Below, one piece after another: positions 1,319 to 43,238 of a stretch of DNA of 44,348 bases. Source of the DNA: Solirubrobacterales bacterium (lineage in GTDB: Bacteria; Actinomycetota; Thermoleophilia; Solirubrobacterales; Solirubrobacteraceae); the NCBI GenBank assembly GCA_019244745.1, contig JAFASF010000189.1:1-44348 (forward strand), written 5' to 3'. Below the pieces are notes generated by a model. The model saw only the letters and a list, made by a program, of their open reading frames with translations. It made no database searches and was not told the origin of the DNA. Within the stretch, counting starts at the first letter, position 1. Every line of letters starts with the position of its first letter. A program made the position numbers and the translations under genes.

Positions 1319-1326
1319 CGTATACC
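1319..1326. promoter_or_regulatory. GTATAC palindrome between divergent genes
   Basis: CGTATACC lies 80 bp before the cupin start and about 90 bp before the hydrolase start. It is the least complete member of the CTGTATAC-type sites found across the window and lacks the leading CTG. Confidence 0.35.
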
Positions 1327-1399
1327 AAATAGGCTCTGGGGACCCGCCGGCCAATGTTAGGATCGGCCGCCAGTCGCCGCTTGACGAGAGGAGGTCGCA

Positions 1400-1828
1400 G
1401 TGAGCCGTGATGCCGGAATCGTCGTCTCGGGCGAGTCCGTCCCGTGGTTCGAAGTCGCCGATGGGATCGAGATGAAGGTGCTGCACCTGGGGGACGACCT
1501 GCCGACCTGGACGGTGCTGATCCGCTTCCAGGCCGGCGAGCGGCTGCCGCACCACATCCACCTCGCTCCGGCTGAGCTCTACATCATCGAAGGTTCGGGA
1601 ACCCACCGCGCGACGGGCGACTTCAGCACGGGGGACCACGTGTTCGAACACACGGGTGCGCGCCACCAGCCGACGACCTTCCACGAGGAGACCGTGTTGT
1701 TGATGGTCAGCTATGGCCCGGTCGCGGTCCTGAACGAGACGGGCGAGCTCGACTGGATCATGGACGTGGACTTCTTCAAGCAGCAGCTCGGCCCGCAGGC
1801 GACCGCCGCGGTCACGGCATCCGCATAA
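1400..1828 (+). CDS. Cupin-fold protein resembling 2,4'-dihydroxyacetophenone dioxygenase
   Basis: A 142-residue single-domain cupin. The first cupin motif is visible as HHIHLAPAELYIIEGSG (two His and a Glu as metal ligands) and the second around FEHTGARHQPTTFHEE. The layout matches the ChrR-like/2,4'-dihydroxyacetophenone dioxygenase group of Fe-dependent cupins, which cleave a C-C bond in aromatic ketones. The GTG start is supported by a strong AGGAGG a few bases upstream. It is transcribed alone and is followed by a perfect hairpin. Ring or side-chain cleavage is inferred from family and context; a simple metal-binding cupin remains possible. Confidence 0.75.
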   Translation: MSRDAGIVVSGESVPWFEVADGIEMKVLHLGDDLPTWTVLIRFQAGERLPHHIHLAPAELYIIEGSGTHRATGDFSTGDHVFEHTGARHQPTTFHEETVLLMVSYGPVAVLNETGELDWIMDVDFFKQQLGPQATAAVTASA

Positions 1829-1829
1829 C

Positions 1830-1862
1830 CGGCGGGGCCGGTCACGCGGACCGGCCCCGCCG
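1830..1862 (+). terminator. Perfect 13-bp hairpin after the cupin gene
   Basis: CGGCGGGGCCGGT pairs perfectly with ACCGGCCCCGCCG across a 7-nt loop, starting two bases after the cupin stop. No clear T tract follows, as is common in high-GC actinobacteria. Confidence 0.7.
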
Positions 1863-1921
1863 CAAGACGCCGCAGCTGGACGGGTCGGCTCTCCGAAGGC
1901 GAAATCGTCAGGCTGTGTCGG

Positions 1922-5356: not shown

Positions 5357-5386
5357 CGATCCTCCGAGGCGACGGGCAAATGAATA

Positions 5387-5396
5387 CTGTAGCCTA
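5387..5396. promoter_or_regulatory. CTGTAGCCTA half-operator between divergent VOC and DapA-like genes
   Basis: A weaker member of the CTGTATAC-type word set. The same string ATACTGTAGCC recurs upstream of the second importer at 24481-24491. AATACT can serve as a -10 towards the plus gene and TACAGT towards the minus gene. Confidence 0.4.
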
Positions 5397-5468: not shown

Positions 5469-6512
5469 ATGCCGCTTCCTTATACACGCGCCGAGATAAA
5501 GGACCGAGCCCGCGAGTGGGTGGGTCTCTGCAACGTCACCCTGCCTTCGTTCAACGAGGCGTTCAGCGATCTCAACGAGGCGGGGATCCGTCACGATGTG
5601 CGCCTCGCGCACGAGTACGGATACTGGGGCACGCTCGTGGCGTCGGAATGTGGCACCACGCTCGAGGAGTACGAGCGCTTCCTCGAGATCGTCGCCGACG
5701 AGGCGCCCGAGGGCTTTCGCGTCGTCGCACATCTCAGCTTCGACACGGTCGAGGACGAGTTGCGCGTGGCCGAGGCGGCCGAGGCCGCGGGTGCGGAGGC
5801 GGCGCTCCTCTCCTACCCGCCCTCGTTCAGGCCCACCTCGGCCGATGAGATTGTCGCCCACACGCGTCACGTGGCCGAGCGCACGGATCTCGCGCTGATT
5901 CTCTTCGGCGTGATGACCTGGGGGTTCAAGCCGCTTCATCCCGCCGGGTTCCCGATCGACGCGTTGGCGGAGATGGCAAAGCTCGAGACCGCGGCGGCGC
6001 TCAAGTACGAGGGCGGCGGGGCGGCGCTGTTCTCGGCCTTCGACGAGGCTTACCGGCGATGCTCCGATCACGTCGTGGTCGAGAACCCGATGGAGATGCA
6101 CATCCCGGCGCTCGTCCGCAACTACGGGGTTCGTTGGTTCGGCACCAGCGGCTACGAATCGGCGCGCGATCGTCCCGTCCGCGTTTTCGAGGCGGCATCG
6201 GCGGGACGTTACGACGAGGCGATGGAGATCTTCTGGAGCTATCACCCAGCCCGCGAGGCGAAGGGCCAGTTCCACGCCAGCTTCGCCGGAGCAGGGCTGA
6301 TCCACCGGGTGGGCTGGAAGTACCTGGGATGGTTGCAGGGCTTCAACGGAGGACTGCTGCGCATGCCCCAGATGCGCCTCAATCCGGGTCAGATGAAGGC
6401 GTTGCGAGCGGGCGCGGCGGCCTCCGGGTTCGAGTTGCCGCCCGACGACACCGAGTTCTACCGGGGGCGTACCGCGGGCATGGCGTTCGCCTCCCGTGGC
6501 CGACACGCCTGA
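5469..6512 (+). CDS. DapA/N-acetylneuraminate-lyase superfamily protein, paralogue 1
   Basis: 347 residues of a (beta/alpha)8 class I aldolase-type protein. A TLPSF motif (26-30) replaces the usual TPF opening, and Lys179 in AALKYEGG fits the Schiff-base lysine. The Tyr of the usual YNxP motif is not conserved: the equivalent strand reads LILFGVM (about 143-149). The C-terminus carries NGGLLRMP and FYRGR, motifs shared with the two tandem paralogues at 36.2-38.3 kb. In aromatic pathways members act as hydratase-aldolases on ring-cleaved pyruvyl products, which is a plausible but unproven role. The start is ATG, with a weak GGAG upstream. It is followed by an overlapping SnoaL-like gene. Confidence 0.8.
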   Translation: MPLPYTRAEIKDRAREWVGLCNVTLPSFNEAFSDLNEAGIRHDVRLAHEYGYWGTLVASECGTTLEEYERFLEIVADEAPEGFRVVAHLSFDTVEDELRVAEAAEAAGAEAALLSYPPSFRPTSADEIVAHTRHVAERTDLALILFGVMTWGFKPLHPAGFPIDALAEMAKLETAAALKYEGGGAALFSAFDEAYRRCSDHVVVENPMEMHIPALVRNYGVRWFGTSGYESARDRPVRVFEAASAGRYDEAMEIFWSYHPAREAKGQFHASFAGAGLIHRVGWKYLGWLQGFNGGLLRMPQMRLNPGQMKALRAGAAASGFELPPDDTEFYRGRTAGMAFASRGRHA

Positions 6513-8990: not shown

Positions 8991-9067
8991 TAGCTTGTCA
9001 GCTCGCAAGCTACGTGTCAACTGGATTCAGTCGCTTGTTGACAACTTGCTGGATGGCAAGCTACAGT
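8991..9067. promoter_or_regulatory. Twin inverted-repeat operators and TetR promoter
   Basis: Site 1 (8991-9012) is a perfect 7-bp inverted repeat, TAGCTTG and CAAGCTA with an 8-nt spacer. Site 2 (9042-9063) is the same repeat with one degenerate arm (CAACTTG/CAAGCTA). They are centred 51 bp apart. TTGACA at 9038-9043 and TACAGT at 9062-9067 form a -35/-10 pair overlapping site 2, so binding would block TetR transcription. Site 1 would face the Rieske operon. Confidence 0.7.
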
Positions 9068-11323: not shown

Positions 11324-11422
11324 GGTATAAGAACCATACTTCGTGTTCGAATTGCTTGGAGCAGCGGTGCGGCTTGTGTGCCGGCACCGCTAACGATGGT
11401 TTCGTGCCACTTCCGCTGGCGA

Positions 11423-11432
11423 CTGTATACAC
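11423..11432. promoter_or_regulatory. CTGTATACAC operator-like site upstream of first Rbs-type importer
   Basis: This contains the perfect palindrome TGTATACA, 49 bp before the start codon of the solute-binding protein. TACACT within it could be a -10. A second, looser GTAT/ATAC pair lies at 11325-11339. The remaining intergenic sequence up to the gene shows no other structure. Confidence 0.55.
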
Positions 11433-11480
11433 TCCTACGGTCTAACCCCCACACTAGGCCCGCGAGGGCAGGAGGAGAAG

Positions 11481-12758
11481 ATGCAAGGACATGATTCCGG
11501 CGCGCCGATGCGCTGGTGGGCCCGGCGCCGTACCTGGCTGGTAGGGATCGCCACGCTGAGCCTGGCCCTGGCCGCCTGCGGAAAGACCAGTTCCGGTTCT
11601 TCCTCGAGCGCCCCGTCGGGGACCACAGCTTCCTCGAACTCGTCATCGCCCACCGCCGGAACGAGCTGCGGGACCGTCCCCTCGCTGCCCATCCACGACT
11701 CGAGCGGCGTGATCGCCTCGCTCGGCTCGACCTACACCACGGCCTACAACGGGAATGCCGATGCGATCCTCCCGAGCGCGTTCGCGCACTTCAAGCCCAA
11801 GAGCACCGGCAACTTCACGATCGGGGTCGCCCTGAGCCAGCCGGGCAACCCCTACAATGCGGCCCTGCTCTCGGCGCTCAGCCGGCAGCTGGGCACGGTC
11901 AAGGGCGTGAGCCATGTGACCGTCCTGACCTCGTCGCCGACTCAACCGACGGTACAGATACAGCAGGTCAATCAGCTGATCCAGCAGGGCGTGAGCGTGA
12001 TCGTGACCGAGCCGATCGTTCCTCCGGCGATGGTGCCGCTGGCGGCGAAGGCCAAGGCTGCCGGGATCCCGCTCGTCGCGGTACTCAACGGCATCCCCAC
12101 CCCAGACGCGATCAGCGTCGCCGCCAACTCGGTCGCCGACGGCCTGAACATGGCGGCCGGCGTGGCAAAGCTGACTGGCGGCAAGGGCACCGTGATCGGA
12201 GTGCACGGCATCCCCACGACCGGGAACGACAAGCAGGCTTTCGTCGGCTTCAACGCCGTGTTCGCCAAGTGCCCGAACATCAAGCTCGACAGCTCGATCG
12301 TCGGCGAGTTCTCACCTCCGCTCGCCAAGCAGGCCACGCTGACCTGGCTTTCCAGTCACCCTCAGCCGGTCGCCGGCGCGGTGCAGGCCGCGGTGATGGG
12401 CAGCGGGATCATCCAGGCCTTCGAACAGACCGGGCGTCCGCAGCCGTCGCTCGGCAACATTCAGGCGTCGGCGGGCGATCTGGCGTACTGGAACGCGCAC
12501 AGGAGCACGTACAAGTCCGTGGCCACCACCATCCCGCCCGACGACATCGCGCGAGCCACCGCTTACGCGGTTTCGCAGATCCTCAGTGGTCACGGCCCGA
12601 AGGTGAACGAGATCGTCTCGCCTGGCGCGCTGATCACGAACTCCAACCTCTCCCAGTGGGTGGTTCCCGGTGCGGGGCCAACGAGTCAGGCGCCGGTCTC
12701 CGGACCGTCCGGAAGCTGGATGCCGGACCACTTCCTCGCGCCGCTGTTCAACGGGTGA
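11481..12758 (+). CDS. Solute-binding lipoprotein of an Rbs-type ABC importer
   Basis: 425 residues. A twin-arginine-like basic start (RWWARRR), a hydrophobic stretch and lipobox LAAC with Cys33 predict a lipid-anchored protein. A Ser/Thr-rich linker (residues 36-60) follows. The rest is a type I periplasmic binding fold (FTIGVALSQPGNPYNAAL, VIVTEPIVPPAM, GIPLVAVLNGIPT, GTVIGVHGIPT) of the sugar-binding group. GGAGGAG lies before the ATG. It is the first gene of a four-gene operon. Ligand could be a sugar, but these proteins also bind other small polar compounds, and the context favours a catabolic substrate. It is controlled by a CTGTATACAC site. Confidence 0.88.
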   Translation: MQGHDSGAPMRWWARRRTWLVGIATLSLALAACGKTSSGSSSSAPSGTTASSNSSSPTAGTSCGTVPSLPIHDSSGVIASLGSTYTTAYNGNADAILPSAFAHFKPKSTGNFTIGVALSQPGNPYNAALLSALSRQLGTVKGVSHVTVLTSSPTQPTVQIQQVNQLIQQGVSVIVTEPIVPPAMVPLAAKAKAAGIPLVAVLNGIPTPDAISVAANSVADGLNMAAGVAKLTGGKGTVIGVHGIPTTGNDKQAFVGFNAVFAKCPNIKLDSSIVGEFSPPLAKQATLTWLSSHPQPVAGAVQAAVMGSGIIQAFEQTGRPQPSLGNIQASAGDLAYWNAHRSTYKSVATTIPPDDIARATAYAVSQILSGHGPKVNEIVSPGALITNSNLSQWVVPGAGPTSQAPVSGPSGSWMPDHFLAPLFNG

Positions 12759-14347
12759 GCGAGAACCCGCCTCCGACGCAAATGACGGCGGCACGCGCGC
12801 CTGCGGCCGTGCCGCCCGCTGCGCCCCACAAGGCGCAGCCGGCCGGGATCCTGCTCGAGGTGCATGGACTGGCGAAGGCGTTCGGCCCCACGCGGGCGCT
12901 GCGCTCCTGCACGTTCGAGCTGCGGGCCGGCGAGGTGCACGCGATCGTGGGCGAGAACGGATCGGGCAAGAGCACGCTGGTCAAGATCCTGGCCGGCGTG
13001 CACCGCCCGGACGCGGGCGAGGTGGCGATCGGAGGACGGCGGGTGCGGGGGCGTCCCAGTCCCCGCGCGGCCCAGGAGTCGGGCGTCGTCACCGTGTTCC
13101 AGGAGGTCCTCGTGGTGGGGCCGCAGCCGGTGCTCGAGAACGTGTGGCTGGGGACCGACGGCGTGTTCGCCCGTCGCGTGCCGGTGGCGGAGAAGCGACG
13201 GCGGGCCGAGGAGGCGCTCGGCGAGCTCCTCGTGACGCCGCCCCCGCTGGACGTCCCGGCGGAGGCGCTGTCGCTGAGCGATCGACAGGCCTGCTGTATC
13301 GCCCGTGCGCTCGTCCGCGACCCCCGGGTGCTGATCCTCGATGAGTCGACCTCCGCGCTTGACGTGGCCACCCGCGATCGCCTGTTCGCGACGATCCAGC
13401 GGCTGTGCGCACAGGGGGTGGGAGTGATCTTCATCTCCCACCGCATGGACGAGATCCAGGAGCTGGCCGACCGCGTGACCGTGCTGCGCTCGGGTCAGAG
13501 CGTGGCCACGCTCGGGCGCGGGGACGCCGACACCGGGGTGATCGTGCGCCACATGACGGGCGAGGACCACCTGACCGCCGGCGTGGAGACGGTCCCCTCC
13601 CGCGCTCGCGTGCGCGGCGAGGCCCTCCTGAGTACCGAGGGACTCAGACTGCATCCGGCCGCGGAGCCGATCGACGTGGAGATCCACGGCGGGGAGCTGG
13701 TCGGGCTCGCCGGCCTCGAGGGTCACGGCCAGGATGCGTTCCTCCAGGCGCTGCGGGGCGCCGGGGCGAACGCGGGGCGCGTGATGGCGGGCGAGGAGGC
13801 CCGCACCGAGATCGGCTCACCACTCGAGGCCTTCCGGGCCGGGGTGGTCTACGTGCCGCGCGACCGCCGCGCCGAGTCGGTGTTTCCCACCCTATCGGTG
13901 TTGGAGAACTTCTCGGTGCCGACGCTCGGCAGCGACCGCAGGGCCGCCCTGGTGCGGTGGCGGGCCACGCGCCGGCGGCTGGGCGAGTACGTCCAGCGGC
14001 TCGGCATCCGGCTGGCCCACCCCAACCAGCCCATCGTGGCCCTAAGCGGCGGCAACCAGCAGAAGGTGATCCTGGCCCGCTGGCTGGCTGCTCGTCCGCG
14101 CGTGCTGCTGCTCAACGATCCGACTCGCGGGGTGGATCTGGGCGCCAAGCGTGACCTCTACCGCGTGCTCGAGCAGCTGGCCGGCCAGGGGGTGGCGGTC
14201 GTGATGGTCTCCACCGAGGTCGACGAGCATGTCGAGCTGATGGACCGGGTGCTGGTGTTCCGCGAAGGCTCGCTGTCGAGGACGCTCTCGCGCGAGCAGC
14301 TCTCACGCACGGCGTTGATCTCCGCCTTCTTCGGGGAATCGGCGTGA
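12755..14347 (+). CDS. Rbs-type ABC ATPase with two nucleotide-binding domains
   Basis: 530 residues from a GTG that overlaps the previous stop (GTGA). Domain 1: Walker A GENGSGKS, an unusual signature LSLSDRQACC in place of LSGGQ, Walker B VLILDESTSALD and switch ISHRMDE. Domain 2: degenerate P-loop GLAGLEGHGQD, intact LSGGNQQK and VLLLNDPTRGVDLGAK. In this family domain 2 is naturally degenerate in its P-loop, whereas here domain 1 also has a weak signature. Glu of domain 2 Walker B is replaced by Asn (LLLNDP). It energises import with the two permeases that follow. Confidence 0.9.
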   Translation: MSENPPPTQMTAARAPAAVPPAAPHKAQPAGILLEVHGLAKAFGPTRALRSCTFELRAGEVHAIVGENGSGKSTLVKILAGVHRPDAGEVAIGGRRVRGRPSPRAAQESGVVTVFQEVLVVGPQPVLENVWLGTDGVFARRVPVAEKRRRAEEALGELLVTPPPLDVPAEALSLSDRQACCIARALVRDPRVLILDESTSALDVATRDRLFATIQRLCAQGVGVIFISHRMDEIQELADRVTVLRSGQSVATLGRGDADTGVIVRHMTGEDHLTAGVETVPSRARVRGEALLSTEGLRLHPAAEPIDVEIHGGELVGLAGLEGHGQDAFLQALRGAGANAGRVMAGEEARTEIGSPLEAFRAGVVYVPRDRRAESVFPTLSVLENFSVPTLGSDRRAALVRWRATRRRLGEYVQRLGIRLAHPNQPIVALSGGNQQKVILARWLAARPRVLLLNDPTRGVDLGAKRDLYRVLEQLAGQGVAVVMVSTEVDEHVELMDRVLVFREGSLSRTLSREQLSRTALISAFFGESA

Positions 14348-19093: not shown

Positions 19094-19100
19094 GTGTAGA

Positions 19101-19110
19101 TAGTATACAC
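19101..19110. promoter_or_regulatory. TAGTATACAC operator/promoter between divergent operons
   Basis: GTATAC at 19103-19108 sits between the monooxygenase operon and the aldehyde dehydrogenase gene. Leftwards it supplies TATACT as a -10. Its flank ACACTTCTTGAG closely matches TTCACTTCTTGGG at the 23.53-kb site. Confidence 0.55.
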
Positions 19111-19145
19111 TTCTTGAGAATTTCACTCTGGACCCCGGAGGAGCC

Positions 19146-23524: not shown

Positions 23525-23531
23525 CTGCCGA

Positions 23532-23541: not shown

Positions 23542-23630
23542 TTCTTGGGTGAACTGCAAGGACGCGAGGGGTGCTGACGACGAATTAGGCCTGCGCTGAA
23601 AAAGGGGCCGTATGCAACCTAAATCCAGCG

Positions 23631-24401: not shown

Positions 24402-24411
24402 CTGTCAACAG
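24402..24411. promoter_or_regulatory. CTGTCAACAG palindrome abutting the GntR start codon
   Basis: Directly adjoins the GntR ATG. Its reverse complement CTGTTGACAG occurs again at 43229-43238 upstream of the ThDP enzyme. Leftwards, TATGCT (24415-24410) lies 8 nt from the ATG. Autoregulation is likely. Confidence 0.55.
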
Positions 24412-24478
24412 CATATCGGACCCCTCGGACGGTCCTCGGGCATAACCCTGCGCTAATGGCAGGCCGCGAGGCGTTTCC

Positions 24479-24493
24479 GTATACTGTAGCCAC
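24479..24493. promoter_or_regulatory. GTATAC/CTGTAGCCAC operator-promoter of second importer
   Basis: GTATAC at 24479-24484 overlaps a -10 (TATACT, 24480-24485) about 30 nt before the solute-binding protein start. CTGTAGCCAC follows at 24484-24493. Confidence 0.6.
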
Positions 24494-24518
24494 TTAATCA
24501 AGCCACGGGGGAGCAGTG

Positions 24519-25631: not shown

Positions 25632-25714
25632 CCCACGGATGTGAGCTCGCCCACGACGATTCCATCGCAGCGGGGGGGCAAGGGCCAGGGGATCCGACCA
25701 ATGCGGCTGCCCAC

Positions 25715-29056: not shown

Positions 29057-29100
29057 GCCTGCGGGAACCTCGTCTAACGCCTGTGGGAACTCCGCCTAGC
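29057..29100. repeat. 22-bp imperfect tandem repeat upstream of the Rieske operon
   Basis: GCCTGCGGGAACCTCGTCTA at 29057 is followed by GCCTGTGGGAACTCCGCCTA at 29079, with 22-bp period. It lies immediately before the operator, and may be an activator or regulator binding region. Confidence 0.45.
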
Positions 29101-29102
29101 GG

Positions 29103-29119
29103 CTGTATACTGTATGCGC
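29103..29119. promoter_or_regulatory. Doubled CTGTATAC word / -10 of the Rieske dioxygenase operon
   Basis: CTGTATACTG (29103-29112) and CTGTATGCGC (29110-29119) overlap with 7-bp spacing. TATACT at 29106-29111 would be the -10, leaving a short leader with GGGAGAG before the ATG at 29139. Confidence 0.6.
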
Positions 29120-29138: not shown

Positions 29139-30455
29139 ATGACCACGATGGCTTCGCTGAAGACGGTGGAGCGCCTGCGAGCGACGGTGGAGCCGGAGCA
29201 GGGGCGGATCCCGATGTTCATCTACACGGACCCGGAGGTCTACGAGCTCGAGCTCGAGCGGGTGTTCGGGCGCACCTGGCTATTTGTCGGCCACGAGTCG
29301 GAGGTGCCGGAACCGGGCTCATTCCTGGTCCGCGACATGGGCGAGGAGTCGGTAATCGTGGGCCGTGGCGAGGACAACCAAGTCCGAGTGTTCCTCAACA
29401 GCTGTCGCCACCGCGGAATGCGGCTGGCATGCGAGGACTTCGGGAAGGTGTCGATGTGGCGCTGTCCCTACCACGGCTTCACCTACGACTCGGCCGGGGA
29501 GTTCATGGGGACGCTGATCGCGGCTCCGTACGAGCGCGCCGCCTATCCCGAGGGTCTCGACCGCAAGGCTCTGCACCTGATTGAGGCCCGCACCGACTCT
29601 CACGCGGGCTTGATCTTTGCCACCTGGTCGCAGGACGGCCCCACGCTCGATCAGTTCCTCGGGAACCTGAGCTGGTATCTGGACCTGTTGGTCGGCCGGG
29701 CCGAGATGGAGGTCGTGGGCGCGCCACAGAAATGGGTGCTGCCGGCAGGCTGGAAGCTGCCGTCGGAGAACTTCTGCGCGGACGCTTACCACACCGCCAC
29801 GGCGCACTCGTTCCTCGCGCGGCTGGGGATGGTGAAGGGAGTCGACTTCGGCCGCGACGGCTATCACGTCGATCCCGGCGGCGGTCACGGACTGGGTGTC
29901 GGTGTGCACTTCGATGAGGAGTCTTACTTCCCCGCCGACCTGCGCGACGAATACAGGGCCCACCTCGAGCCCGAGCAGCTCGGCCTGCTCGACCGGGTCA
30001 AGAACCTGCACGGCAACGTATTCCCGAACCTCTCATTCCTGATCCCGAACTTCATCGTCGTCGATGGGCGTCGGGTCAGCGGCATGATGCTCCGGCTCTG
30101 GCAACCGATCGGGCCCGACAAGGTGCAGGTGTGGTCGTGGCATCTGGTGGAGAGAAACGCTCCCGAATGGTGGAAGCGACTCGGGCAGAAGATGTATGTG
30201 CAGACCTTCGGTATGTCCGGAATGTTCGACCAGGACGACACCGAGAACTGGGAAGCGCAGACCCGCAACTCCAACACCGCGCTCTGGCGGCAGGACGAAA
30301 TCATGCTGCACTACGCGATGGGAATCTCGGGCGAGCCGCTCACGGAATTCCCCGGACCTGGCGACGTCTATGACGGGAAGTTCTCCGAGGCGGCGGGGCG
30401 CACCTTCTACCGGACCTGGCTCGACTTGATCCTCGACCAGCGGCCGGAGCAGTGA
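29139..30455 (+). CDS. Rieske aromatic-ring dioxygenase, alpha subunit
   Basis: 438 residues, normal for alpha subunits. Rieske cluster ligands: C89-x-H91 (NSCRHRGMRL) and C109-x2-H112 (WRCPYHGFTYD). Mononuclear iron: D215-x2-H218-x4-H223 (ENFCADAYHTATAHS) plus the late DQDDTENW segment. It catalyses cis-dihydroxylation or monooxygenation of an aromatic ring with electrons from the ferredoxin. The start ATG follows GGGAGAG. It is the first gene in a tight alpha-beta-ferredoxin operon. Sequence style is closer to the benzoate/biphenyl-type alpha subunits, but substrate cannot be read. Confidence 0.95.
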   Translation: MTTMASLKTVERLRATVEPEQGRIPMFIYTDPEVYELELERVFGRTWLFVGHESEVPEPGSFLVRDMGEESVIVGRGEDNQVRVFLNSCRHRGMRLACEDFGKVSMWRCPYHGFTYDSAGEFMGTLIAAPYERAAYPEGLDRKALHLIEARTDSHAGLIFATWSQDGPTLDQFLGNLSWYLDLLVGRAEMEVVGAPQKWVLPAGWKLPSENFCADAYHTATAHSFLARLGMVKGVDFGRDGYHVDPGGGHGLGVGVHFDEESYFPADLRDEYRAHLEPEQLGLLDRVKNLHGNVFPNLSFLIPNFIVVDGRRVSGMMLRLWQPIGPDKVQVWSWHLVERNAPEWWKRLGQKMYVQTFGMSGMFDQDDTENWEAQTRNSNTALWRQDEIMLHYAMGISGEPLTEFPGPGDVYDGKFSEAAGRTFYRTWLDLILDQRPEQ

Positions 30456-30967
30456 TCGCGGCCGGCGCCATCGGCATCGAGACCTGGCTCGAAGTCCATC
30501 ATTTCCTGGTGGCCGAGGCGGAGCTGCTCGACAATCGTCGGTTCGAGGAGTGGCTGGAGCTCTTCACCGAGGACGTCGAGTACACCGCCCCTGTGCGGGT
30601 CACGAAAAAGAATCCAGCACCGGACGTGGTGGCGCAGAACCTTTTGTTCGACGAGAACCTGGCGTCACTGACCCTCCGGGTCAAGCGGCTCGCGACCGAC
30701 GTCGCCTGGGCTGAAGATCCACCCTCGCTCACCCGGAGGCTGATCACCAACATCCGGGTCAATCCCGCCCCCGCCGACGATGAGTTTTTGGTCAAGAGCA
30801 ACGTGCTGCTGTTCCGCAGCCGGGGCGACGTGGGTCGTCACGACATCGTCTGCGGTGAGCGCGAGGACACGCTCCGGCGCCTCGAGGGCGCACTGAAGAT
30901 TGCCCGGCGACGCATCGTGTTTGACCAGGCCTCGCTCGGGACCAAGAACCTGGCGGTGTTTCTTTGA
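30452..30967 (+). CDS. Aromatic-ring dioxygenase, beta subunit
   Basis: 171 residues of the NTF2-like small-subunit fold: VHHFLVAEAELLDNRRFEEW near the N-terminus and a conserved R-I-x-F-D-like end (RRRIVFDQASLGTKNLAVFL). It is structural, forming the alpha3beta3 hexamer. A GTG start overlaps the alpha stop by GTGA, showing translational coupling. The ferredoxin gene follows after 22 nt. Confidence 0.93.
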   Translation: MIAAGAIGIETWLEVHHFLVAEAELLDNRRFEEWLELFTEDVEYTAPVRVTKKNPAPDVVAQNLLFDENLASLTLRVKRLATDVAWAEDPPSLTRRLITNIRVNPAPADDEFLVKSNVLLFRSRGDVGRHDIVCGEREDTLRRLEGALKIARRRIVFDQASLGTKNLAVFL

Positions 30968-30989
30968 TGCGGACGAGAGGAGGACGGCG

Positions 30990-31190
30990 GTGCAAGTCAC
31001 TGTAGATCTCTCGCGCTGCCAGGGTTACGCCAACTGCGTGGGAACCGCGCCGGAGATATTCGACCTAGACGAGGAAACGGGGCAAGCCGTCGTGCTGGTG
31101 CCCGAGCCGCCTACCGACCTGTACGAGGCGGCGCGCGCCGCGGTGGCAGGGTGTCCGGTGCAGGCGATCACGGCGGACGAGGAGTCGTAA
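30990..31190 (+). CDS. [3Fe-4S]-type small ferredoxin
   Basis: 66 residues. Three cluster cysteines are visible: Cys10 and Cys16 (RCQGYANCVGTAPEIFD) and Cys55 before Pro (GCPVQAI), the pattern of actinobacterial one-cluster ferredoxins usually serving P450 or Rieske oxygenases. The GTG start is preceded by GAGAGGAGGA. It would pass electrons from a reductase, perhaps the one at 40.3 kb, to the dioxygenase. A [3Fe-4S] protein with a Rieske dioxygenase is unusual but known in actinobacteria. Confidence 0.92.
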   Translation: MQVTVDLSRCQGYANCVGTAPEIFDLDEETGQAVVLVPEPPTDLYEAARAAVAGCPVQAITADEES

Positions 31191-33583: not shown

Positions 33584-33591
33584 ACGCTAGA

Positions 33592-33601
33592 CTGTATACG
33601 C
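33592..33601. promoter_or_regulatory. CTGTATACGC operator shared by two divergent, probably leaderless genes
   Basis: GTATAC at 33594-33599. Leftwards: TACAGT (33596-33591), 7 nt, ATG 33583. Rightwards: TAGACT (33588-33593), 9 nt, TTG 33603. Only 19 bp separates the two reading frames. Confidence 0.6.
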
Positions 33602-33602
33602 T

Positions 33603-34616
33603 TTGCGTCGCTTGTACGCCGCGCTAGAAGGTGTACTGCTCGTGCTTACGGGAGAGGGCACGAAGTGGGCGATCGGAGCGCGGCGGGAGGGCTGGTCTCC
33701 GATGTGCCTGGCCATCGACCCGCGCGACGCCGCGCGCGTGCTGTGCGGCACCTTCGGAGCGGGTCTGTGGATCAGCGAGGACGGCGGCCGCGACTGGCGC
33801 CAGATCGAGCTCGCTCATGACAAGGTGACCGCGCTCGCCTTCGACCCAAGCGAGCCGAGCACCGCGTGGGCGGGCACGGAGCTGAGCGCCGTGTACCGCT
33901 CGGGAGACGGCGGGCGGACCTGGGAGGAGATGGCGGCGCTTCAGCGCCTCGCCTCCAAGCCCGATTGGTTCTACCCGCCCCGCCCGGAGGTTCACTACGT
34001 TCGGTGCATCACGCCGCATCCGAACGAGCCCGGCCGGGCCTTCGTGGCCATCGAGCAGGGAGGTCTGATGAGCACCCGAGATTACGGTGAGACCTGGCAG
34101 GACCGGGTCCCTGGCGGTCCATTCGACATCCACACGCTGCTCATCCACCCGGACGCTCCGGACCGCCTGTGCGCGGTGACGGGGGACGGGTTCGTGCGCG
34201 CCGGCTACGGGTACTGGGAGAGCCCAGACGCCGGCGCGACGTGGTCCTGGCCGACGGCCGGGATGGCGCATCATTACCTGTGGGGGCTCGCCGTGGATCC
34301 CGCCGATCCGGACGCGATGGTCATGTCGGGCGCCAACTGCCCCACCGCCCTGCACAGCCCGATGGTCGGCGAGTCGTTCATCTACCGCCGCACTGGTAAC
34401 GGCTGGGTGCCGTGTGGCGATGGCCTGGCCGATCCCCGGGGCACGATCGAACCGCTGCTGGCCTCGAGCTCCGGCGAGCCCGGCACGTTCTATGCCCTCA
34501 CCAACAAGGGGATCTTCCGCTCGGTCGATCAGGGGGCGAGCTGGCAGGGGCTCGAAGTGCCCTGGGAGCCTCAGTTCGCGGTCAGCGGGCCCCGCGCGAT
34601 CGCCATCGCCGGCTAG
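33603..34616 (+). CDS. Asp-box (BNR/sortilin-type) beta-propeller protein without signal peptide
   Basis: 337 residues with five Asp-box-like repeats: SEDGGRDWRQ, SGDGGRTWEE, STRDYGETWQD, SPDAGATWSW and SVDQGASWQG, spaced through the sequence. This is the pattern of seven-bladed propellers seen in sialidases, photosystem assembly factors and exported glycosidases, but no export signal is present. The start is TTG, with no ribosome-binding site. It could be a sensor/scaffold or hydrolase/lactonase of cytosolic intermediates; function not assigned. It is convergent with the interrupted aldehyde dehydrogenase. Confidence 0.8.
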   Translation: MRRLYAALEGVLLVLTGEGTKWAIGARREGWSPMCLAIDPRDAARVLCGTFGAGLWISEDGGRDWRQIELAHDKVTALAFDPSEPSTAWAGTELSAVYRSGDGGRTWEEMAALQRLASKPDWFYPPRPEVHYVRCITPHPNEPGRAFVAIEQGGLMSTRDYGETWQDRVPGGPFDIHTLLIHPDAPDRLCAVTGDGFVRAGYGYWESPDAGATWSWPTAGMAHHYLWGLAVDPADPDAMVMSGANCPTALHSPMVGESFIYRRTGNGWVPCGDGLADPRGTIEPLLASSSGEPGTFYALTNKGIFRSVDQGASWQGLEVPWEPQFAVSGPRAIAIAG

Positions 34617-36101: not shown

Positions 36102-36148
36102 GGGATCTCCTGTCGCTGGTCGGGAACGCTCCGCAAAGGTACCGTATG

Positions 36149-36158
36149 CTGTATACAG
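36149..36158. promoter_or_regulatory. Perfect CTGTATACAG palindrome between divergent genes
   Basis: The most complete operator. It lies 41 nt before the DapA-like start and 47 nt before the aldehyde dehydrogenase TTG. TATGCT at 36145-36150 can serve as the plus-strand -10. Confidence 0.65.
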
Positions 36159-36199
36159 TTGGCAGGATATCGATCGAGGGAGAGGAGAAGGGGTGAGAT

Positions 36200-38469: not shown

Positions 38470-39477
38470 TCAAGCCACCTCTCCCTCCAGCTGAACCGGG
38501 GCGGTGGCCGGCTTCAGACGGGTGAGCTCGCCCAGCTCGCGGCCGACGCCGCGGGTCGTAGCCGCGGTGATCAATCGCCCAGCCAGAGCCAGATCCTGCA
38601 CCGCCGTGCCAGCCGATTTGAACACGCGCAGGTCGCGCTCCCCCGAGCGCTCGAGCGTCTCCGGTGCGCTCATCACGCCTGCGATCGACACCAGGTGGTC
38701 GGGGGTGACCGCCCCGTGAGCGATGGCGTCGATCAGGTCGCCGCACTCCCGCAGCACCGAGGCGGCGTCGTCGACCATGACCACCGCGGCCCGCCGCAGC
38801 GTCGAGCGGTCGAGCTCGCGCAGGTCGGGGCGCGTCGATCCGATCGAGAGCACGACCGAATCCGGTTGGAGGTCGCGGCCGTCGATCACGGGCTCGCTGG
38901 CCTTCGTGGCGAGCACCACGGTCCGAGCCGTGCCGATCGCCTTTGCCGCCGAGCACACCGGCTTGACATCGATCCCGAGCTCGAGCGTCTGGCGTTCGGC
39001 AAAGGCGGTGCGCCGTTCGACGCTGGGACTGTAGACCGCAACCGACTCCAGCGGCCACAACCTCGCCATCGCCCGCAGGTGGGTGGTGGCCTCGAAACCC
39101 GAGCCGATCAGCGCGATCCGCCGCTGGGGCTCGGGTTGCAGCACATGGGCGGCCACCGCCGTGATCCCCGCGGTTCGAAGCCGCGTCACCTCATCGGCGT
39201 CGAGCATCGCCAGCAGCTCGCCGGTCTCCTGGGTATAGACGAGCAGCAGGTACCGATTGCCGACGCCCCTCACCAGCGTCATCACCTTGAGGCCCATCAG
39301 CCCGTCGAGGGCACCGGGCATCACGCGAAGGAAGCCGCGCGGAAGGTTGACGTCGAGTCGCGGCGGGATCACGGCTCTGCCCTCTCGCTCGGCGTTGACC
39401 GCCGACCGCGCCGCGTCCATCACCAGGTCCGCCGTCGCGAGCTCGCGAACGTCGTCGGTGGAGAGGAACAGCGCCAC
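38470..39477 (-). CDS. Ornithine cyclodeaminase/mu-crystallin family protein
   Basis: 335 residues: an N-terminal dimerisation part, RLRTAGITAVAAHVLQP, a Rossmann loop RIALIGSGFEATTHLRA and the C-terminal FKSAGTAVQDLALAGRL hallmark. The family includes ornithine cyclodeaminase, alanine dehydrogenase, ketimine reductase and tauropine-type enzymes, so amine or imino-acid chemistry is likely. It follows an SDR gene by 26 nt on the same strand and ends near the hairpin. Confidence 0.88.
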   Translation of the reverse strand: MALFLSTDDVRELATADLVMDAARSAVNAEREGRAVIPPRLDVNLPRGFLRVMPGALDGLMGLKVMTLVRGVGNRYLLLVYTQETGELLAMLDADEVTRLRTAGITAVAAHVLQPEPQRRIALIGSGFEATTHLRAMARLWPLESVAVYSPSVERRTAFAERQTLELGIDVKPVCSAAKAIGTARTVVLATKASEPVIDGRDLQPDSVVLSIGSTRPDLRELDRSTLRRAAVVMVDDAASVLRECGDLIDAIAHGAVTPDHLVSIAGVMSAPETLERSGERDLRVFKSAGTAVQDLALAGRLITAATTRGVGRELGELTRLKPATAPVQLEGEVA

Positions 39478-39503
39478 TTACCCGTTCCTCAAGGGGAGCC
39501 CGC

Positions 39504-40253
39504 TCACGCCATCACCAGCCCACCGCTGACCTCGAGCACCTGACCGGTCAGGTAGCGGCTCTCGTCGGAGAGGAGGAACAACACCGGGCCCACGACGTCG
39601 CCCGGCTCGCCGATCCGGCGCAGGGGGATCACCTCGGCTCGGGCCGCCTCGTCGAAGTCGGGGAGATCGTCGAGCATCGGCGTGCGTATCGGCCCAGGCG
39701 CGACGGCGTTGACACGGATCCCGTCGTCACCCAGCTCGGCGGCGGCGGAACGCACGAGTGCCTCCACGCCGGCCTTGGCGGCGGCGTAGTGCGCGCCGAG
39801 CGCATAGGGACGGCGGGCCCAGCCCGAGGAGAAAGCGCAGACGCTCCCGCCTCCGGCGGCGCGCAGACGCGGAACCGCGGCCTTGAGCAGCAGGAACGTG
39901 GCCGTCAAGGAGGCATCGACGATCCGACGCCACTCCTCCAGGGCGAGCTCCTCGAGGGGGGCCTCCGACACCACGCCCGAGGCGCAGACCAGGAGCGAGA
40001 GTCCGCCCAGACGCTCGGTCGCCAGCGCCACCGCGGCGGCGACATCGTCGGGATCGGTCAGATCGCAGCGGAGCATCAGCTCCGCGCCACCGACATCGGC
40101 GTCGGCCAGGTCGAGCACTCCGACGCGGGCCCCCCGCTCGGCGAGGGCGCTCGTCAGCGCGCGCCCGATGCCGCCGGCGCCTCCGGCGATCAGCGCGGGG
40201 CGCCGGTCAAACCCGGACCATCGAGCGGTTGTTTCAGACTTGGCCACGACCAT
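39504..40253 (-). CDS. Short-chain dehydrogenase/reductase
   Basis: 249 residues, classical SDR. The glycine motif is AGGAGGIGRAL at about 23-33, ASG replaces NNAG, and YAAAK is the catalytic pair. The C-terminal LTGQVLEVSGGL is typical. It would oxidise a dihydrodiol or alcohol of the pathway. The ATG lies 8 nt after a TACAGT -10 in the CTGTATACAT word, with no ribosome-binding site. Downstream is the ornithine-cyclodeaminase-like gene. Confidence 0.92.
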   Translation of the reverse strand: MVVAKSETTARWSGFDRRPALIAGGAGGIGRALTSALAERGARVGVLDLADADVGGAELMLRCDLTDPDDVAAAVALATERLGGLSLLVCASGVVSEAPLEELALEEWRRIVDASLTATFLLLKAAVPRLRAAGGGSVCAFSSGWARRPYALGAHYAAAKAGVEALVRSAAAELGDDGIRVNAVAPGPIRTPMLDDLPDFDEAARAEVIPLRRIGEPGDVVGPVLFLLSDESRYLTGQVLEVSGGLVMA

Positions 40254-40262
40254 ATTTGGAGA

Positions 40263-40272
40263 CTGTATACAT
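40263..40272. promoter_or_regulatory. CTGTATACAT operator/leaderless promoter of the SDR gene
   Basis: GTATAC at 40265-40270; leftwards TACAGT (40267-40262), 8 nt, ATG 40253. It lies in the 18-bp gap between two minus genes, so an internal promoter splits the operon. Confidence 0.6.
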
Positions 40273-41468
40273 TAGGAGGCGACGAAAGGCAAGCTGGCGG
40301 CGCGCTGGGCGATCTCCGCTCGCAGCGCGGCGAGCGGGCGGGGCATCCCATAGGCGACGGCGCCGATGATCTGGCCGCGGTGGCGCGCGACAGCCGCGAA
40401 TCGGCGTTCGGCCGGGTCTCCGGCCACCACCTCGAGCTGCTCGCCACGCTCGGGAAGACCGATCGATTGCAAGCGCACGCCGAAGTGCTCGGACCAAAAG
40501 CTCGGTATGGGCGCATACGGCCTGCCGTGTCCAGGCCCGCGCAGGAGCGCGCGAGCGGCGGCCAGGGCCTGCTCGCCGGCATTGCTCCAGTGCTCCACGC
40601 GCATCGGCGAAGGTCCAAACAGAGCATGGGGCCAGCGTGCCACGTCGCCGGCCGCCGCCAGTCCCGGGGCACCGCGGACCAGGCACCACTCATCGCACAC
40701 GACCCCGTCGTCCATCTGCAGCCCGCTGCCCTGTAGCCAGTCGACCGCGGGTTCCGCGCCGACGGCGCTGAGTACCACGTCTGCCTCCAGGCGCGTCTGG
40801 TCGTCGAGCACGAGAAGTTGGCCGGCCTCGCTCCGCTGCACGGCGACCACCGTCCGGGGGATGTGCACGCGGACGCCGTGTTCCGCGAGCAGGCGCCGGG
40901 TGAACTCGCTTACCAACTCGCCCGCGATCGCGAGCGGTGGATCCAGGCTGACCACGTCGACCTCGAGGCCGAGGGACCGCGCGGTCGAGGCGACCTCGAC
41001 GCCGATGAAGCCGGCGCCGACGATCGCCAGCCGATCAGCGGCCGCGAGCGCGCGCCGCAGGGCGAGCGCATCATCCAGCGTGCGGAGCTCGTGAATCCCG
41101 GAGGCTGCTGGATCGAGCGCGCGCAGCCGCCGCGGGCGACTGCCGGTAGCGATCAGCAGCCGGTCGAACGGGAGCTCGTCGCCCGAACCGAGCCTGAGTC
41201 GGCGCCGGACACAATCCAGCCTCACCGCCGAATATCCGAGCAGCCACGTGGCTTGCAGCTCACCAAGGCTCCGCAGTTCGACGTCGGGTGGCTCGAGCCT
41301 GCCGGCGAGCAGCTCCTTGGAAAGTGGCGGCCGGTCGTACGGCCGCCAGCGCTCCCGCCCGACGATGGTCAGTTCGCCGTCGAAGCCCTCCGCGCGCAGG
41401 GCCTCCGCGCCGCGCAGTCCGGCCAGCGAGGCGCCTACCACCACGATCCGCTCCGGAGTCGGGCTCAC
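40272..41468 (-). CDS. FAD/NAD-dependent ferredoxin reductase (BphA4/RHO type)
   Basis: 398 residues. FAD motif IVVVGASLAGLRGAE at the N-terminus, NAD motif LAIVGAGFIGVEVAS in the middle, and a typical GDVARWP plus VEHWSNAGEQ late FAD contact. This is the electron source for ring dioxygenases or P450s and could serve the [3Fe-4S] ferredoxin 9 kb away. Its GTG start overlaps the ThDP enzyme stop by GTGA, making a coupled pair whose logic is unclear. Confidence 0.9.
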   Translation of the reverse strand: MSPTPERIVVVGASLAGLRGAEALRAEGFDGELTIVGRERWRPYDRPPLSKELLAGRLEPPDVELRSLGELQATWLLGYSAVRLDCVRRRLRLGSGDELPFDRLLIATGSRPRRLRALDPAASGIHELRTLDDALALRRALAAADRLAIVGAGFIGVEVASTARSLGLEVDVVSLDPPLAIAGELVSEFTRRLLAEHGVRVHIPRTVVAVQRSEAGQLLVLDDQTRLEADVVLSAVGAEPAVDWLQGSGLQMDDGVVCDEWCLVRGAPGLAAAGDVARWPHALFGPSPMRVEHWSNAGEQALAAARALLRGPGHGRPYAPIPSFWSEHFGVRLQSIGLPERGEQLEVVAGDPAERRFAAVARHRGQIIGAVAYGMPRPLAALRAEIAQRAASLPFVAS

Positions 41469-43210
41469 GCGCCGGCGGTCACGACTTCGACCAAGGCGGG
41501 GTGGCCGCCGCGCACCACGGCCACCGCCCGGCGAAGCGCTGGGACGATCTCCTCCGGGCGCTGCAGCGGACCGATCGACCACACGCCGAATGACTTGGCC
41601 AGGTTGGCGTAGTCGACGTGCGGATGATCGAGGACCGCGCCGACGTGGCGTCGCCCTTCCGGACGCCCGCGCTGCTCGGCGATCCGGGCGGCGTGCTCGA
41701 CCGTGTTGCGGTACTGGCGGTTGTTCTGCACGAGCACCAGGACGGGACTCCGCAGATGGGCCGCGGTCCAGAGCGCCGAGGGCGTGTAGAGCAGGTCTCC
41801 GTCGGGCTGCAGGTCGACGAGCAGCCGGTCGGGGTCGTCGAACCCGAGCGCGGCTCCGATCGAGGCTCCGAGGCCGTAGCCGAGGCCGCCGCCCCCGTGC
41901 CAGCCCAGGTGCGCGCGGAAGCCGCCCAGCGGCCACAGCCGGCGTTCCCAGTCGGTCGTCTTGCTGTGTACGACGCACGGGCGTTCCGGGGCGAGAGCCT
42001 CCCAGGCCTCGACCGCGAGCCGGGCAGGATGCACGGCATTCCGCGCGCCGGCGTCGGATGCCTCCCGCCAGAGAGCCTCACGGCGAGCCCGCGCCCTTCC
42101 TGCCAGGCGCCGCCGCCGCTCGGACAGGCGGGTCGCCTCGGGGCCCTGGCGCTCGATCCGCGACACGAGCGCAGGCAGCGCCGTCTCCGGGCTGGCGGTG
42201 ATCTGCCGCTCGGCCGCCACCAGCTCGCCTACGTCGTGCGCCCAGGAGCGCACCCGCAGGTGCCCGGCGGAGACGTGGACGACGGCTGCCGATCCCTCTC
42301 CGCGCGGTGGTGGCCGCGGCGTGGATCCGAGTCCGGCGGCGTCGAGCGCGCCGTAGAGGTCCTCCACGTCAAAGCCGACGACCAGATCGGCCTCCCCGAG
42401 GATTTCGGGCAACTCGGTGAAGTTGAGCTCGTGGTCGACCGGCATGTTGTGCCGCGCGCCGCGGTCGATCACCGGAGCGTGCAGCCGCTCCGCGAGGGCC
42501 ACGAACCCCTCGAAGCCGGCAGCGGTGTCACCCGCGTAGTCGCTGATCAGCACCGGCAACCGCGCCTCGCGCAGCCGCGACGCCAGCGCGTCGAGCTCCG
42601 TCTCGGTGGTGGCCGGCGCGGTGGGCGCGGGGAACGAGTCCGGCGACGGCCAGGACCCGCCCTGCCATGGCTCCTCCTGCAGCCCCGCGTCGAGACACAG
42701 GTACACCGGACCCGGAGGTTGGGCCCGGGCGAAGTTCAAAGCGCGGGCCAACGCACGGGGGATCGACGCGGCATCGGCCGGCTGGTCATCCCATTTGACG
42801 TAATCGCGAACCTGTTCGCCCTGCACATTGGCGGTGTGGATCCAATCGATCCACGGCCTCCGCTTGGCGGTCGAAACCGGTCCCGTCCCTCCGAGCAGCA
42901 GCACCGGCACGCGGTCGCACCACGCGTTGTAGATGGCCATCGCGGCATGCTGAAGCCCGACCACATCATGTAGCAGGACCGCCATGGGGCGCCCGGTGGC
43001 CTTGGCGTAGCCGTGGGCGACCGCCACGCTGATCTCCTCGTGCGTGCAGAGCACGGTGCCGGGTCCGTCCGAGCGGTAGTTGACCAGTGAATCCTGTAGG
43101 CCGCGAAAGCTCGCGCCGGGATTGAAAGCGACGTGGCTGATTCCGGCTGCGGTGAGCAGGTCGACGATCGCATCCGAGACCCAGCTGGCTGTGGTCGCGC
43201 CCGTCGACAT
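41465..43210 (-). CDS. Thiamine-diphosphate-dependent enzyme of the acetolactate-synthase/decarboxylase superfamily
   Basis: 581 residues with three ThDP domains. The catalytic Glu58 is in CTHEEISVAVAHGYAKATG. The cofactor motif is DLQPDGDLLYTPSALWTAA and ends VQNNRQYRN (GDG...NN form changed to PDGD...NN). Substrate specificity is not recognisable; it may decarboxylate a 2-oxoacid such as a benzoylformate-type or phenylpyruvate. ATG at 43210 is 10 nt after TACACT; longer starts run through the operator. Coupled to the ferredoxin reductase. Confidence 0.88.
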   Translation of the reverse strand: MSTGATTASWVSDAIVDLLTAAGISHVAFNPGASFRGLQDSLVNYRSDGPGTVLCTHEEISVAVAHGYAKATGRPMAVLLHDVVGLQHAAMAIYNAWCDRVPVLLLGGTGPVSTAKRRPWIDWIHTANVQGEQVRDYVKWDDQPADAASIPRALARALNFARAQPPGPVYLCLDAGLQEEPWQGGSWPSPDSFPAPTAPATTETELDALASRLREARLPVLISDYAGDTAAGFEGFVALAERLHAPVIDRGARHNMPVDHELNFTELPEILGEADLVVGFDVEDLYGALDAAGLGSTPRPPPRGEGSAAVVHVSAGHLRVRSWAHDVGELVAAERQITASPETALPALVSRIERQGPEATRLSERRRRLAGRARARREALWREASDAGARNAVHPARLAVEAWEALAPERPCVVHSKTTDWERRLWPLGGFRAHLGWHGGGGLGYGLGASIGAALGFDDPDRLLVDLQPDGDLLYTPSALWTAAHLRSPVLVLVQNNRQYRNTVEHAARIAEQRGRPEGRRHVGAVLDHPHVDYANLAKSFGVWSIGPLQRPEEIVPALRRAVAVVRGGHPALVEVVTAGA

Positions 43211-43228
43211 CCGAGGAGAAAGTGTATC

Positions 43229-43238
43229 CTGTTGACAG
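43229..43238. promoter_or_regulatory. CTGTTGACAG palindrome upstream of ThDP enzyme
   Basis: It is the exact reverse complement of the site at the GntR start. GTATCC at 43224-43229 adjoins it. It may regulate the divergent ThDP and SDR genes. Confidence 0.5.

What the first reader, a model, noticed from the sequence alone, without database searches (positions are those of the whole stretch)
1319..43238. A recurring CTGTATACAC-like word at most promoter regions: a possible local regulon of the GntR/FCD regulator
Aligned 10-mers: 11423 CTGTATACAC, 23532 CTGTATTCAC, 24402 CTGTCAACAG, 24484 CTGTAGCCAC, 29103 CTGTATACTG, 33592 CTGTATACGC, 36149 CTGTATACAG, 40263 CTGTATACAT, 43229 CTGTTGACAG, 5387 CTGTAGCCTA, plus related GTATAC at 1320 and 19103. 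Nearly all are upstream of start codons in intergenic DNA. FCD-type GntR regulators are known to bind short palindromes with a GTATAC core, and the sole FCD gene has such words on both sides. If it governs all of them, one regulator controls importers, oxygenases, aldolases and dehydrogenases.
Basis: partly seen in the sequence, partly recalled or inferred. Interest (0 to 1): 0.78.

Follow-up and report, generated by a model that had tools for sequence, protein, structure and literature searches.

The report
GntR-family operator regulon, aromatic-catabolism cluster
A soil-type actinobacterium carries a 44-kb cluster of uptake and ring-breaking genes in which most promoters hold the same short DNA switch, most likely bound by the one GntR-type regulator encoded in the middle; it is a clear new regulon of a familiar kind rather than a new kind of system.

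Summary
GTATAC occurs 8 times in the window against 0.8 expected, and is not enriched genome-wide. A symmetrised 22-bp model (consensus TGRCAACTGTATACAGTTGYCA), built only from relatives' loci chosen by homology to the window's FCD/GntR protein, finds 12 sites of at least 10 bits in the window, 11 of them between genes, but 1 in 359 kb of the same genome elsewhere. Seven of eight window GTATACs have matching arms, against 0 of 31 elsewhere; the word at 1320 does not belong. In six other genomes of the order the operator lies 22-60 bp before the orthologous Rieske oxygenase, and 8 of 14 related regulator genes carry it upstream. Five more distant homologues in genomes without a close regulator have none. 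The protein is predicted to be a VanR-subgroup FCD regulator with an N+3H metal-site signature, like Atu1419, which binds ATGTATACAT over the -10 box. Most likely it is a repressor at 16 gene starts, relieved by an unknown, probably aromatic or N-heteroaromatic, acid. Binding, inducer and sign of control are inferred. A new, operator-rich member of a known kind.

The parts
23712..24401 (-). FCD/GntR regulator (229 aa, P0001), predicted VanR subgroup
   Evidence: Pfam GntR 5e-18 and FCD 5e-27; AlphaFold model: wHTH plus six effector-domain helices; N135 nearly invariant, H139, H182, H204 invariant in 12 of the 14 clade sequences, the ones aligned
5374..5395 (.). operator (19.1 bits) between Glyox-SDR1 (-) and DHDPS1-SnoaL (+)
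9015..9036 (.). operator (11.9 bits) upstream of TetR gene
11417..11438 (.). operator (19.8 bits) upstream of first sugar-type ABC importer (PBP 11481-12758)
19095..19116 (.). operator (14.0 bits) between HsaA-like monooxygenase (-) and aldehyde dehydrogenase (+)
23526..23547 (.). operator (13.9 bits, GTATTC core) at start of RutA/SfnG-like luciferase-type monooxygenase (-)
24396..24417 (.). weak operator (6.7 bits) overlapping the regulator's start codon; same register in L066 scores 11.5, a register 7 bp away 22.8
24471..24492 (.). operator (15.7 bits) between regulator (-) and second ABC importer (+)
29097..29118 (.). operator (17.7 bits) upstream of Rieske dioxygenase alpha-beta-ferredoxin
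33586..33607 (.). operator (16.4 bits) between luciferase-like monooxygenase/alpha-beta hydrolase (-) and Vps10-like gene (+)
36143..36164 (.). operator (25.4 bits) between aldehyde dehydrogenase 2 (-) and DHDPS-like 2 (+)
40257..40278 (.). operator (21.5 bits) upstream of SDR2-OCD (-)
43216..43237 (.). operator (16.9 bits) upstream of TPP enzyme - ferredoxin reductase (-)
43081..43102 (.). possible intragenic site (10.9 bits) inside the TPP enzyme gene; may be chance
5469..6512 (+). DHDPS-family enzyme (aldolase/hydratase-like), marker of the cluster: 74-76% identical orthologues in 6 other genomes (the one of G168 partial)
29139..31190 (+). Rieske ring-hydroxylating dioxygenase alpha, beta, ferredoxin
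38470..40253 (-). SDR and ornithine-cyclodeaminase/mu-crystallin family enzyme
40272..43211 (-). HcaD-like ferredoxin reductase and TPP-dependent enzyme
11481..16334 (+). ABC importer 1 (PBP, ATPase, two permeases)
24516..28236 (+). ABC importer 2 (PBP, ATPase, permease)

Best explanation
The words are operators of the FCD/GntR regulator encoded at 23712-24401. A dimer reads GT-N2-AC in the core of a 22-bp palindrome (TGRCAACTGTATACAGTTGYCA). Because the core overlaps the likely -10 region or lies just before the start codon, the protein most likely blocks RNA polymerase at 16 gene starts in the window: importers, Rieske dioxygenase, flavin monooxygenases, aldolase-like, dehydrogenase and TPP enzymes, a TetR gene and its own gene. 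An effector, probably a carboxylate intermediate of the aromatic or N-heteroaromatic compound degraded here and bound at the predicted metal site, would release it. Shown: the sites, their statistics, their conservation before orthologous genes and their co-occurrence with the cluster and, in most cases, the regulator. Inferred: physical binding, the dimer, repression, the effector.
For: A matrix trained on 13 sites from six loci of other genomes, none from the window, gives 12 window sites of at least 10 bits. 100 Markov simulations give 0.16 on average, at most 2, and 359 kb of own genome gives 1. Window GTATAC arms: 7 of 8 score above 0, against 0 of 31 elsewhere in the genome. Each of the 6 training loci left out in turn, its sites still score 4.3-16.7 bits on arms alone. 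Orthologous Rieske alpha genes (68-78%): an operator 22-60 bp upstream in 7 of 7 (own plus 6; only the G100 one was a training site), against 1 of 8 for paralogues at 39-42%, or 2 of 8 if a site cut by a contig end in G168 is counted. Regulator gene: a site within 100 bp upstream in 8 of 14 clade members. In G136 and G049 every ACTGTATAC found in the genome lies in one stretch (44 kb and 35 kb) around the cluster. The DHDPS orthologue (at least 74%) is in 7 of 232 order genomes, own included, the same ones that have the Rieske orthologue. The other 11 FCD genes of the genome lack sites nearby. The motif fits the published FCD rule GT-N2-AC and the Atu1419 operator.
Against: No binding data. 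Six of 14 clade regulators (G136, G192b, G177b, G066, G100c, G108) have no strong site before their own gene, and the G066, G100c and G108 loci have no site of at least 8 bits at all. G168 has the sites and cluster but no detected close regulator; its contig ends inside the aldolase gene, next to which the regulator lies in G136. In G177 and G192 ACTGTATAC (2 and 2) is no commoner than its reversed control (5 and 3), and G177's two lie on another contig than its cluster. The homologues without sites in regulator-less genomes are only 38-54% identical, so that comparison is loose. Window sites are weaker than relatives' (10.9-25.4 bits against up to 30.6). 5384 lies 85 bp upstream of DHDPS1, so activation there is not excluded.
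Confidence: 0.85

Rival explanations
1. The operators belong to another regulator of the cluster (the TetR-type protein at 9083-9746, or the LysR-type HTH at the start of ORF 1922-3316).
For: A TetR gene lies in the window with a site 58 bp upstream.
Against: tblastn of the window TetR found no counterpart in the relatives' loci at E 1e-8 (L066-L077) or, in the filtered list, at 1e-12, while the GntR gene is there with the same motif. The motif is the GT-N2-AC palindrome published for FCD regulators.
Confidence: 0.05
2. The word is an alternative -10 promoter element shared by the cluster's promoters, not an operator.
For: The core often reads TATACT/TACAGT at a plausible -10 place, several times with the start codon 12-21 bp after the site centre.
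Against: Arms out to +/-10 are conserved, orientation relative to genes varies, and 31 of 31 other GTATACs examined in the genome lack the arms. A -10 element would not be confined to one cluster.
Confidence: 0.03
3. Same operator and regulator, but the protein activates some or most promoters.
For: Sites 80-85 bp upstream of gntR and DHDPS1 allow it.
Against: 14 of 16 starts lie 12-63 bp from a site centre, several sites overlapping the likely -10 or start codon, which suits steric repression; Atu1419 represses from the same position.
Confidence: 0.1
4. A chance or mobile repeat (for example an uptake or restriction site) clustered here.
For: Local clustering only.
Against: Sites sit before genes, 11 of 12 outside coding DNA, and recur before orthologous genes in other genera.
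Confidence: 0.01

Closest known systems
Atu1419 (VanR subgroup of FCD, Agrobacterium fabrum; PDB 6z74, 6za3)
   Same: FCD regulator, six effector-domain helices, Asn + 3 His metal site; binds ATGTATACAT palindromes that overlap the -10 box of two hydroxycinnamate-catabolism promoters (PMC7797058, passages and section 23); Foldseek hit E 2e-9
   Different: 26-28% identity over the structural match; 10-bp palindrome and three identical sites, against a 22-bp element with conserved arms and 11 intergenic operators here
PmiR, Pseudomonas aeruginosa (PDB 7xp0/7xp1)
   Same: best fold match of the model (E 2e-10, TM 0.76-0.77) and second-best PDB sequence match
   Different: 27-28% identity; its pathway and operator are not known from any call here
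[quoted passage not shown] 2015
   Same: palindromic GT-N2-AC operators; weaker extra boxes 7-12 nt from the centre in many GntR-family groups (PMC4494728, sections 10 and 17)
   Different: regulon sizes were not compared; none appears as regulator of a Rieske/monooxygenase cluster in the passages read
TM0439 (PDB 3sxy)
   Same: metal-binding VanR-type FCD fold (TM 0.77)
   Different: 23% identity; DNA site not compared

Membership tests
GntR superfamily, FCD (PF07729) regulators | N-terminal GntR wHTH and C-terminal FCD domain | tested here: met
   PF00392 5e-18 and PF07729 5e-27, both above cut-off
GntR superfamily, FCD (PF07729) regulators | operator of the form (N)yGT(N)xAC(N)y | tested here: met
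   core GT-N2-AC: G/C at +/-3 in all 43 relative and 12 window sites, T/A at +/-2 in 83% and 71% of half-sites; rule from PMC4494728. That this protein binds it is not tested
VanR subgroup of FCD | six, not seven, helices in the effector domain | tested here: met
   helices 82-104, 109-124, 128-146, 149-168, 175-190, 194-214 in the AlphaFold model, pLDDT 86; criterion from PMC7797058
Metal-binding FCD | Asn/Asp plus three His | tested here: met
   N135 nearly invariant; H139, H182, H204 invariant in 12 sequences; metal binding itself not tested
Atu1419-type repressor | operator overlaps the -10 box | tested here: inconclusive
   by eye on 18 promoter views; no mapped transcription starts
Atu1419-type repressor | direct DNA binding, tetramer, effector release | not testable with these tools
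   needs protein
Autoregulated local regulator | operator at own gene | tested here: met
   24481 (80 bp, shared with the divergent importer) and weak 24406; 8 of 14 clade members have a strong site within 100 bp upstream, 6 do not

The most novel reading that the evidence does not exclude
The 22-bp element is a three-box operator with 7-bp period (GRCAAC-T-GTATAC-A-GTTGYC; in several sites extended as tandem GTATRC-T-GTATAC), read by two or three cooperating dimers or by a tetramer. Eleven such operators spread over 38 kb could then be bridged, so that the cluster is silenced as one looped domain by a single local FCD protein.
Probability: 0.12. Interest if true: 0.65.

Novelty: new member of a known kind. 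Interest (0 to 1): 0.45.

Why it matters
It gives a comparatively supported regulon, with operator sequence and regulator, in what appears to be Solirubrobacterales. Two full-text searches of the held library returned no paper with Solirubrobacter, GntR and regulon and one listing, on urban tree microbiomes, with Solirubrobacterales, aromatic, dioxygenase and transcriptional regulator. It ties 16 otherwise separate gene starts (importers, Rieske dioxygenase, RutA-like and luciferase-like monooxygenases, aldolase-like, OCD and TPP enzymes) into one pathway, and it points to genes elsewhere (contig C312) that probably belong to it. That makes the pathway's substrate testable through the regulator's inducer.

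Tried and rejected
The GTATAC at 1320 was tested and rejected. A plain -10 element was considered and rejected as the full explanation. A strict 13-mer (RACTGTATACAGT) scan over 201 genomes matched only 3 (G100, G136, G168) and is too narrow to be sensitive: it misses the own genome. A scan of 396 genomes drawn across the phylum for the DHDPS marker found only the own genome at E 1e-60. Function of the pathway: of 20 proteins scanned with NCBIfam (19 of the window, 1 of C312), none reached the curated cut-off of any family shown; for four of them only the best 25 of 26-39 families were shown. The PDB comparison of DHDPS1 gives only weak N-acetylneuraminate-lyase-like and DHDPS hits. The N-heteroaromatic idea rests on a RutA-like monooxygenase and, in G136, a molybdenum hydroxylase next to a site; in G168 a similar operon was read from the DNA by eye only. 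It stays a guess. The sister regulators without sites (G066, G100c, G108) were not followed to their own operators.

The control is not a random sample: its 20 stretches are from contigs that earlier GTATAC, CTGTATAC or FCD searches had turned up, which should make it richer, not poorer, in such words. The matrix was made symmetrical by counting both strands, so its symmetry is partly imposed.
Full report
What was checked. The palindrome GTATAC occurs 8 times in the 44,348-base window (69% G+C) where shuffles give 0.81 and at most 4. The window is contig C96 of a 4.89-Mb, 463-contig genome. A named relative of its regulator (77% identical) is on a contig of a Solirubrobacterales MAG; a contig of the same length with the match at the same place is in G016, a genome of the window's own genus. 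So the organism is taken to be of that order (inference). Over the whole genome GTATAC occurs 136 times and its reversed control 149 times. It is therefore not a favoured word in this genome, and 1.2 would be expected in the window (Poisson P 3e-5). CTGTATAC has 16 distinct places, 5 in the window.

An independent motif. A group of 13 matches at 40-79% identity and E 1.3e-41 or better, in 8 other genomes, stands apart from the listed rest at E 3e-31 or worse and 38% or less, one at 40% over 159 residues aside. With 13 chosen outgroup sequences they form one clade with the window protein. DNA around them was fetched as 11 loci. Six of the 11 held 13 GTATACs, five held none. A 22-position matrix was made from these 13 sites, counting both strands, with none from the window. 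In the window it gives 12 sites of at least 10 bits. First-order Markov sequences give 0.16 on average, at most 2, in 100 runs. Twenty stretches of the same genome (359,002 bases) give 1. All of these stretches came from contigs that earlier searches had turned up, and the one with the hit was chosen because it held CTGTATAC, so the control leans against the finding. Taking only GTATAC words, the arms of 7 of 8 in the window score positive (0.7 to 12.0), while 31 of 31 distinct ones examined elsewhere in the genome score negative (-1.2 to -27.1). The word at 1320 scores -15.5 and is not part of the set.

Where the sites lie. Eleven of 12 are outside genes, and 11.7% of the window is non-coding by a gene list that I set by hand from ORFs and Pfam matches. 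The twelfth (43091) is inside the TPP-enzyme gene and may be chance. The eleven sites lie within 130 bp of 16 gene starts, five of the sites between divergent genes. Fourteen of the 16 starts are 12-63 bp from a site centre, and two (regulator 80, DHDPS1 85) are further. Gene-oriented views show the core as TATACT, TATACA or TACAGT at a plausible -10 place, with the start codon only 12-21 bases after the site centre at five starts (Luc1, Luc2, SDR2, TPP, HsaA-like). So the operator would cover the -10 or the start of a leaderless message. This was judged by eye; no transcription start is known.

Conservation. The DHDPS-like gene has orthologues of 74-76% in 6 of the 231 other genomes of the order examined: G049, G100, G136, G168 (partial), G177, G192. 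Three matches at 38-41% complete the list. The Rieske alpha orthologue (68-78%) is in the same 6. An operator of 17.7-30.2 bits lies 22-60 bp before the matched start of this Rieske gene in all 7 genomes, own included; of these only the G100 site was in the training set. Of 8 paralogous Rieske genes at 39-42%, one (G136, 79 bp upstream) has a site; a second, in the same genus (G168), has ACTGTATAC about 80 bp upstream at the very end of its contig, where the matrix could not score it. For DHDPS1 the site is 85 bp upstream in the window and 44 bp in G136. In G049, G100, G177 and G192 it is 0.8-1.4 kb upstream; in G177 and G192 (SDR2) and G100 (an AA_synth-family gene) another gene lies between, as at the head of an operon, and in G049 the gap was not examined. 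In G168 the contig ends inside the gene. Homologues of DHDPS, Luc1 and Rieske in genomes without a close regulator (5 loci: G058 three, G084, G091; 38-54% identical) have no site of at least 10 bits. The clusters also share OCD (54-61%), TPP enzyme (48-57%), aldehyde dehydrogenase (58-61%) and ferredoxin reductase (50-60%). In 22 loci of relatives (345 kb) 43 sites of at least 14 bits were counted in 15 loci, 13 of them the training sites. Six of the other loci, 110 kb of sister-clade regulators, a paralogous cluster and far flanks, have none of at least 10 bits.

Genome-level test. In 22 chosen genomes ACTGTATAC has 5, 7, 9, 8, 2 and 2 strand matches in the six with the cluster (G049, G100, G136, G168, G177, G192) and 7 together in the sixteen without. 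In G136 all 9 lie in one 44-kb stretch and in G049 all 5 in 35 kb. Against the reading: in G177 and G192 the reversed control is at least as common (5 and 3), and G177's two matches lie on another contig than its cluster; 5 of the 9 sites listed for the loci of these two genomes have a GTATTC core instead.

Link to the regulator. Eight of 14 clade members have a strong site within 100 bp upstream of their own gene: window, G016, G049a, G049b, G100a, G100b, G192a, G177a; four of these sites (G049a, G049b, G100a, G100b) were training sites. Six do not: G136, G192b, G177b, G066, G100c, G108. The loci of G066, G100c and G108 have no sites; G066 and G108 also have no DHDPS match at E 1e-60, while G100 has its cluster on another contig. 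They probably have another task. G168 has sites and cluster but its best regulator match is a distant one (36%); its contig ends inside the aldolase gene beside which the regulator lies in G136. The other 11 FCD genes of the own genome have no site in the up to 1.5 kb held on either side, some cut by contig ends (best 4.9 bits). The window's TetR has no counterpart in L066-L077 at E 1e-8.

The protein. Pfam GntR and FCD match. With 12 of the 14 clade sequences AlphaFold gives a model of pLDDT 86 with a wHTH and six effector-domain helices, the mark of the VanR subgroup (PMC7797058, passages and section 23 read). N135, H139, H182 and H204 are conserved and match in order and partly in spacing Atu1419's zinc ligands Asn137, His141, His192, His214. 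The first fold matches are PmiR, 6ep3 (Lar/MouR), 3c7j, Atu1419 and, at rank 11, TM0439. Atu1419 binds ATGTATACAT, which overlaps the -10 box of two of its promoters. It was the only paper of the held library found with both TGTATACA and GntR in the text. The FCD operator rule with 2-nt spacing, and weaker extra boxes 7-12 nt from the centre, are described in PMC4494728 (passages, sections 10 and 17 read). The outer arms seen here, GRCAAC and GTTGYC at 7-bp steps from the core, look like such boxes.

What it does. The enzymes behind the sites are a ring-hydroxylating dioxygenase with ferredoxin and reductase, HsaA-like, RutA/SfnG-like and luciferase-like monooxygenases, an HsaD-like hydrolase, amidohydrolase, aldolase-family, dehydrogenase, OCD-family and TPP enzymes, and two sugar-type importers. 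They suggest uptake and breakdown of an aromatic, perhaps nitrogen-containing, compound. In G136 a site stands before a molybdenum hydroxylase. The substrate cannot be named. The most likely mechanism is repression lifted by a carboxylate intermediate; sign, ligand and binding are inferred.

Verdict. It is a new member of a known kind, notable for the number of operators under one local FCD regulator and for a second locus on contig C312 (27.9 bits, before a monooxygenase 60% identical to Luc1). No claim is made that such operator numbers are unprecedented; that was not searched.

Noticed in passing
L077 (G000:C312) 4684-4705: Best operator seen in the genome (27.9 bits) upstream of a luciferase-like monooxygenase, TPP enzyme and FAD oxidoreductase, at the end of a 4.8-kb contig; may be another part of the same regulon or an adjacent piece of the cluster.
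   Followed up: partly
window 1922-3316: ORF with an N-terminal LysR-type HTH (PF00126) followed by a branched-chain-type ABC ATPase; fusion or frame artefact unclear.
   Followed up: no
window 8885-8980: Short imperfect repeats (CGTCCCGCTTTACGTG...GGGCTCGGGCGCCATT) in the gap between the Rieske gene and the TetR gene, seen by eye.
   Followed up: no
L066, L067, L070, L072-L074 upstream of the regulator genes: Regulator genes with and without an operator show TATGCT or TATCCT shortly before the start, suggesting leaderless promoters; in others the operator core takes that place.
   Followed up: partly
L075, L076 (G192, G177): Operators often have a GTATTC core where the regulator's wing reads HHV instead of HRR/HRL: possible protein-DNA coevolution, though G136 (HRL) also has GTATTC sites.
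   Followed up: no
window 33603-34616: ORF with a Sortilin/Vps10-type match, sharing an operator region with Luc2.
   Followed up: no
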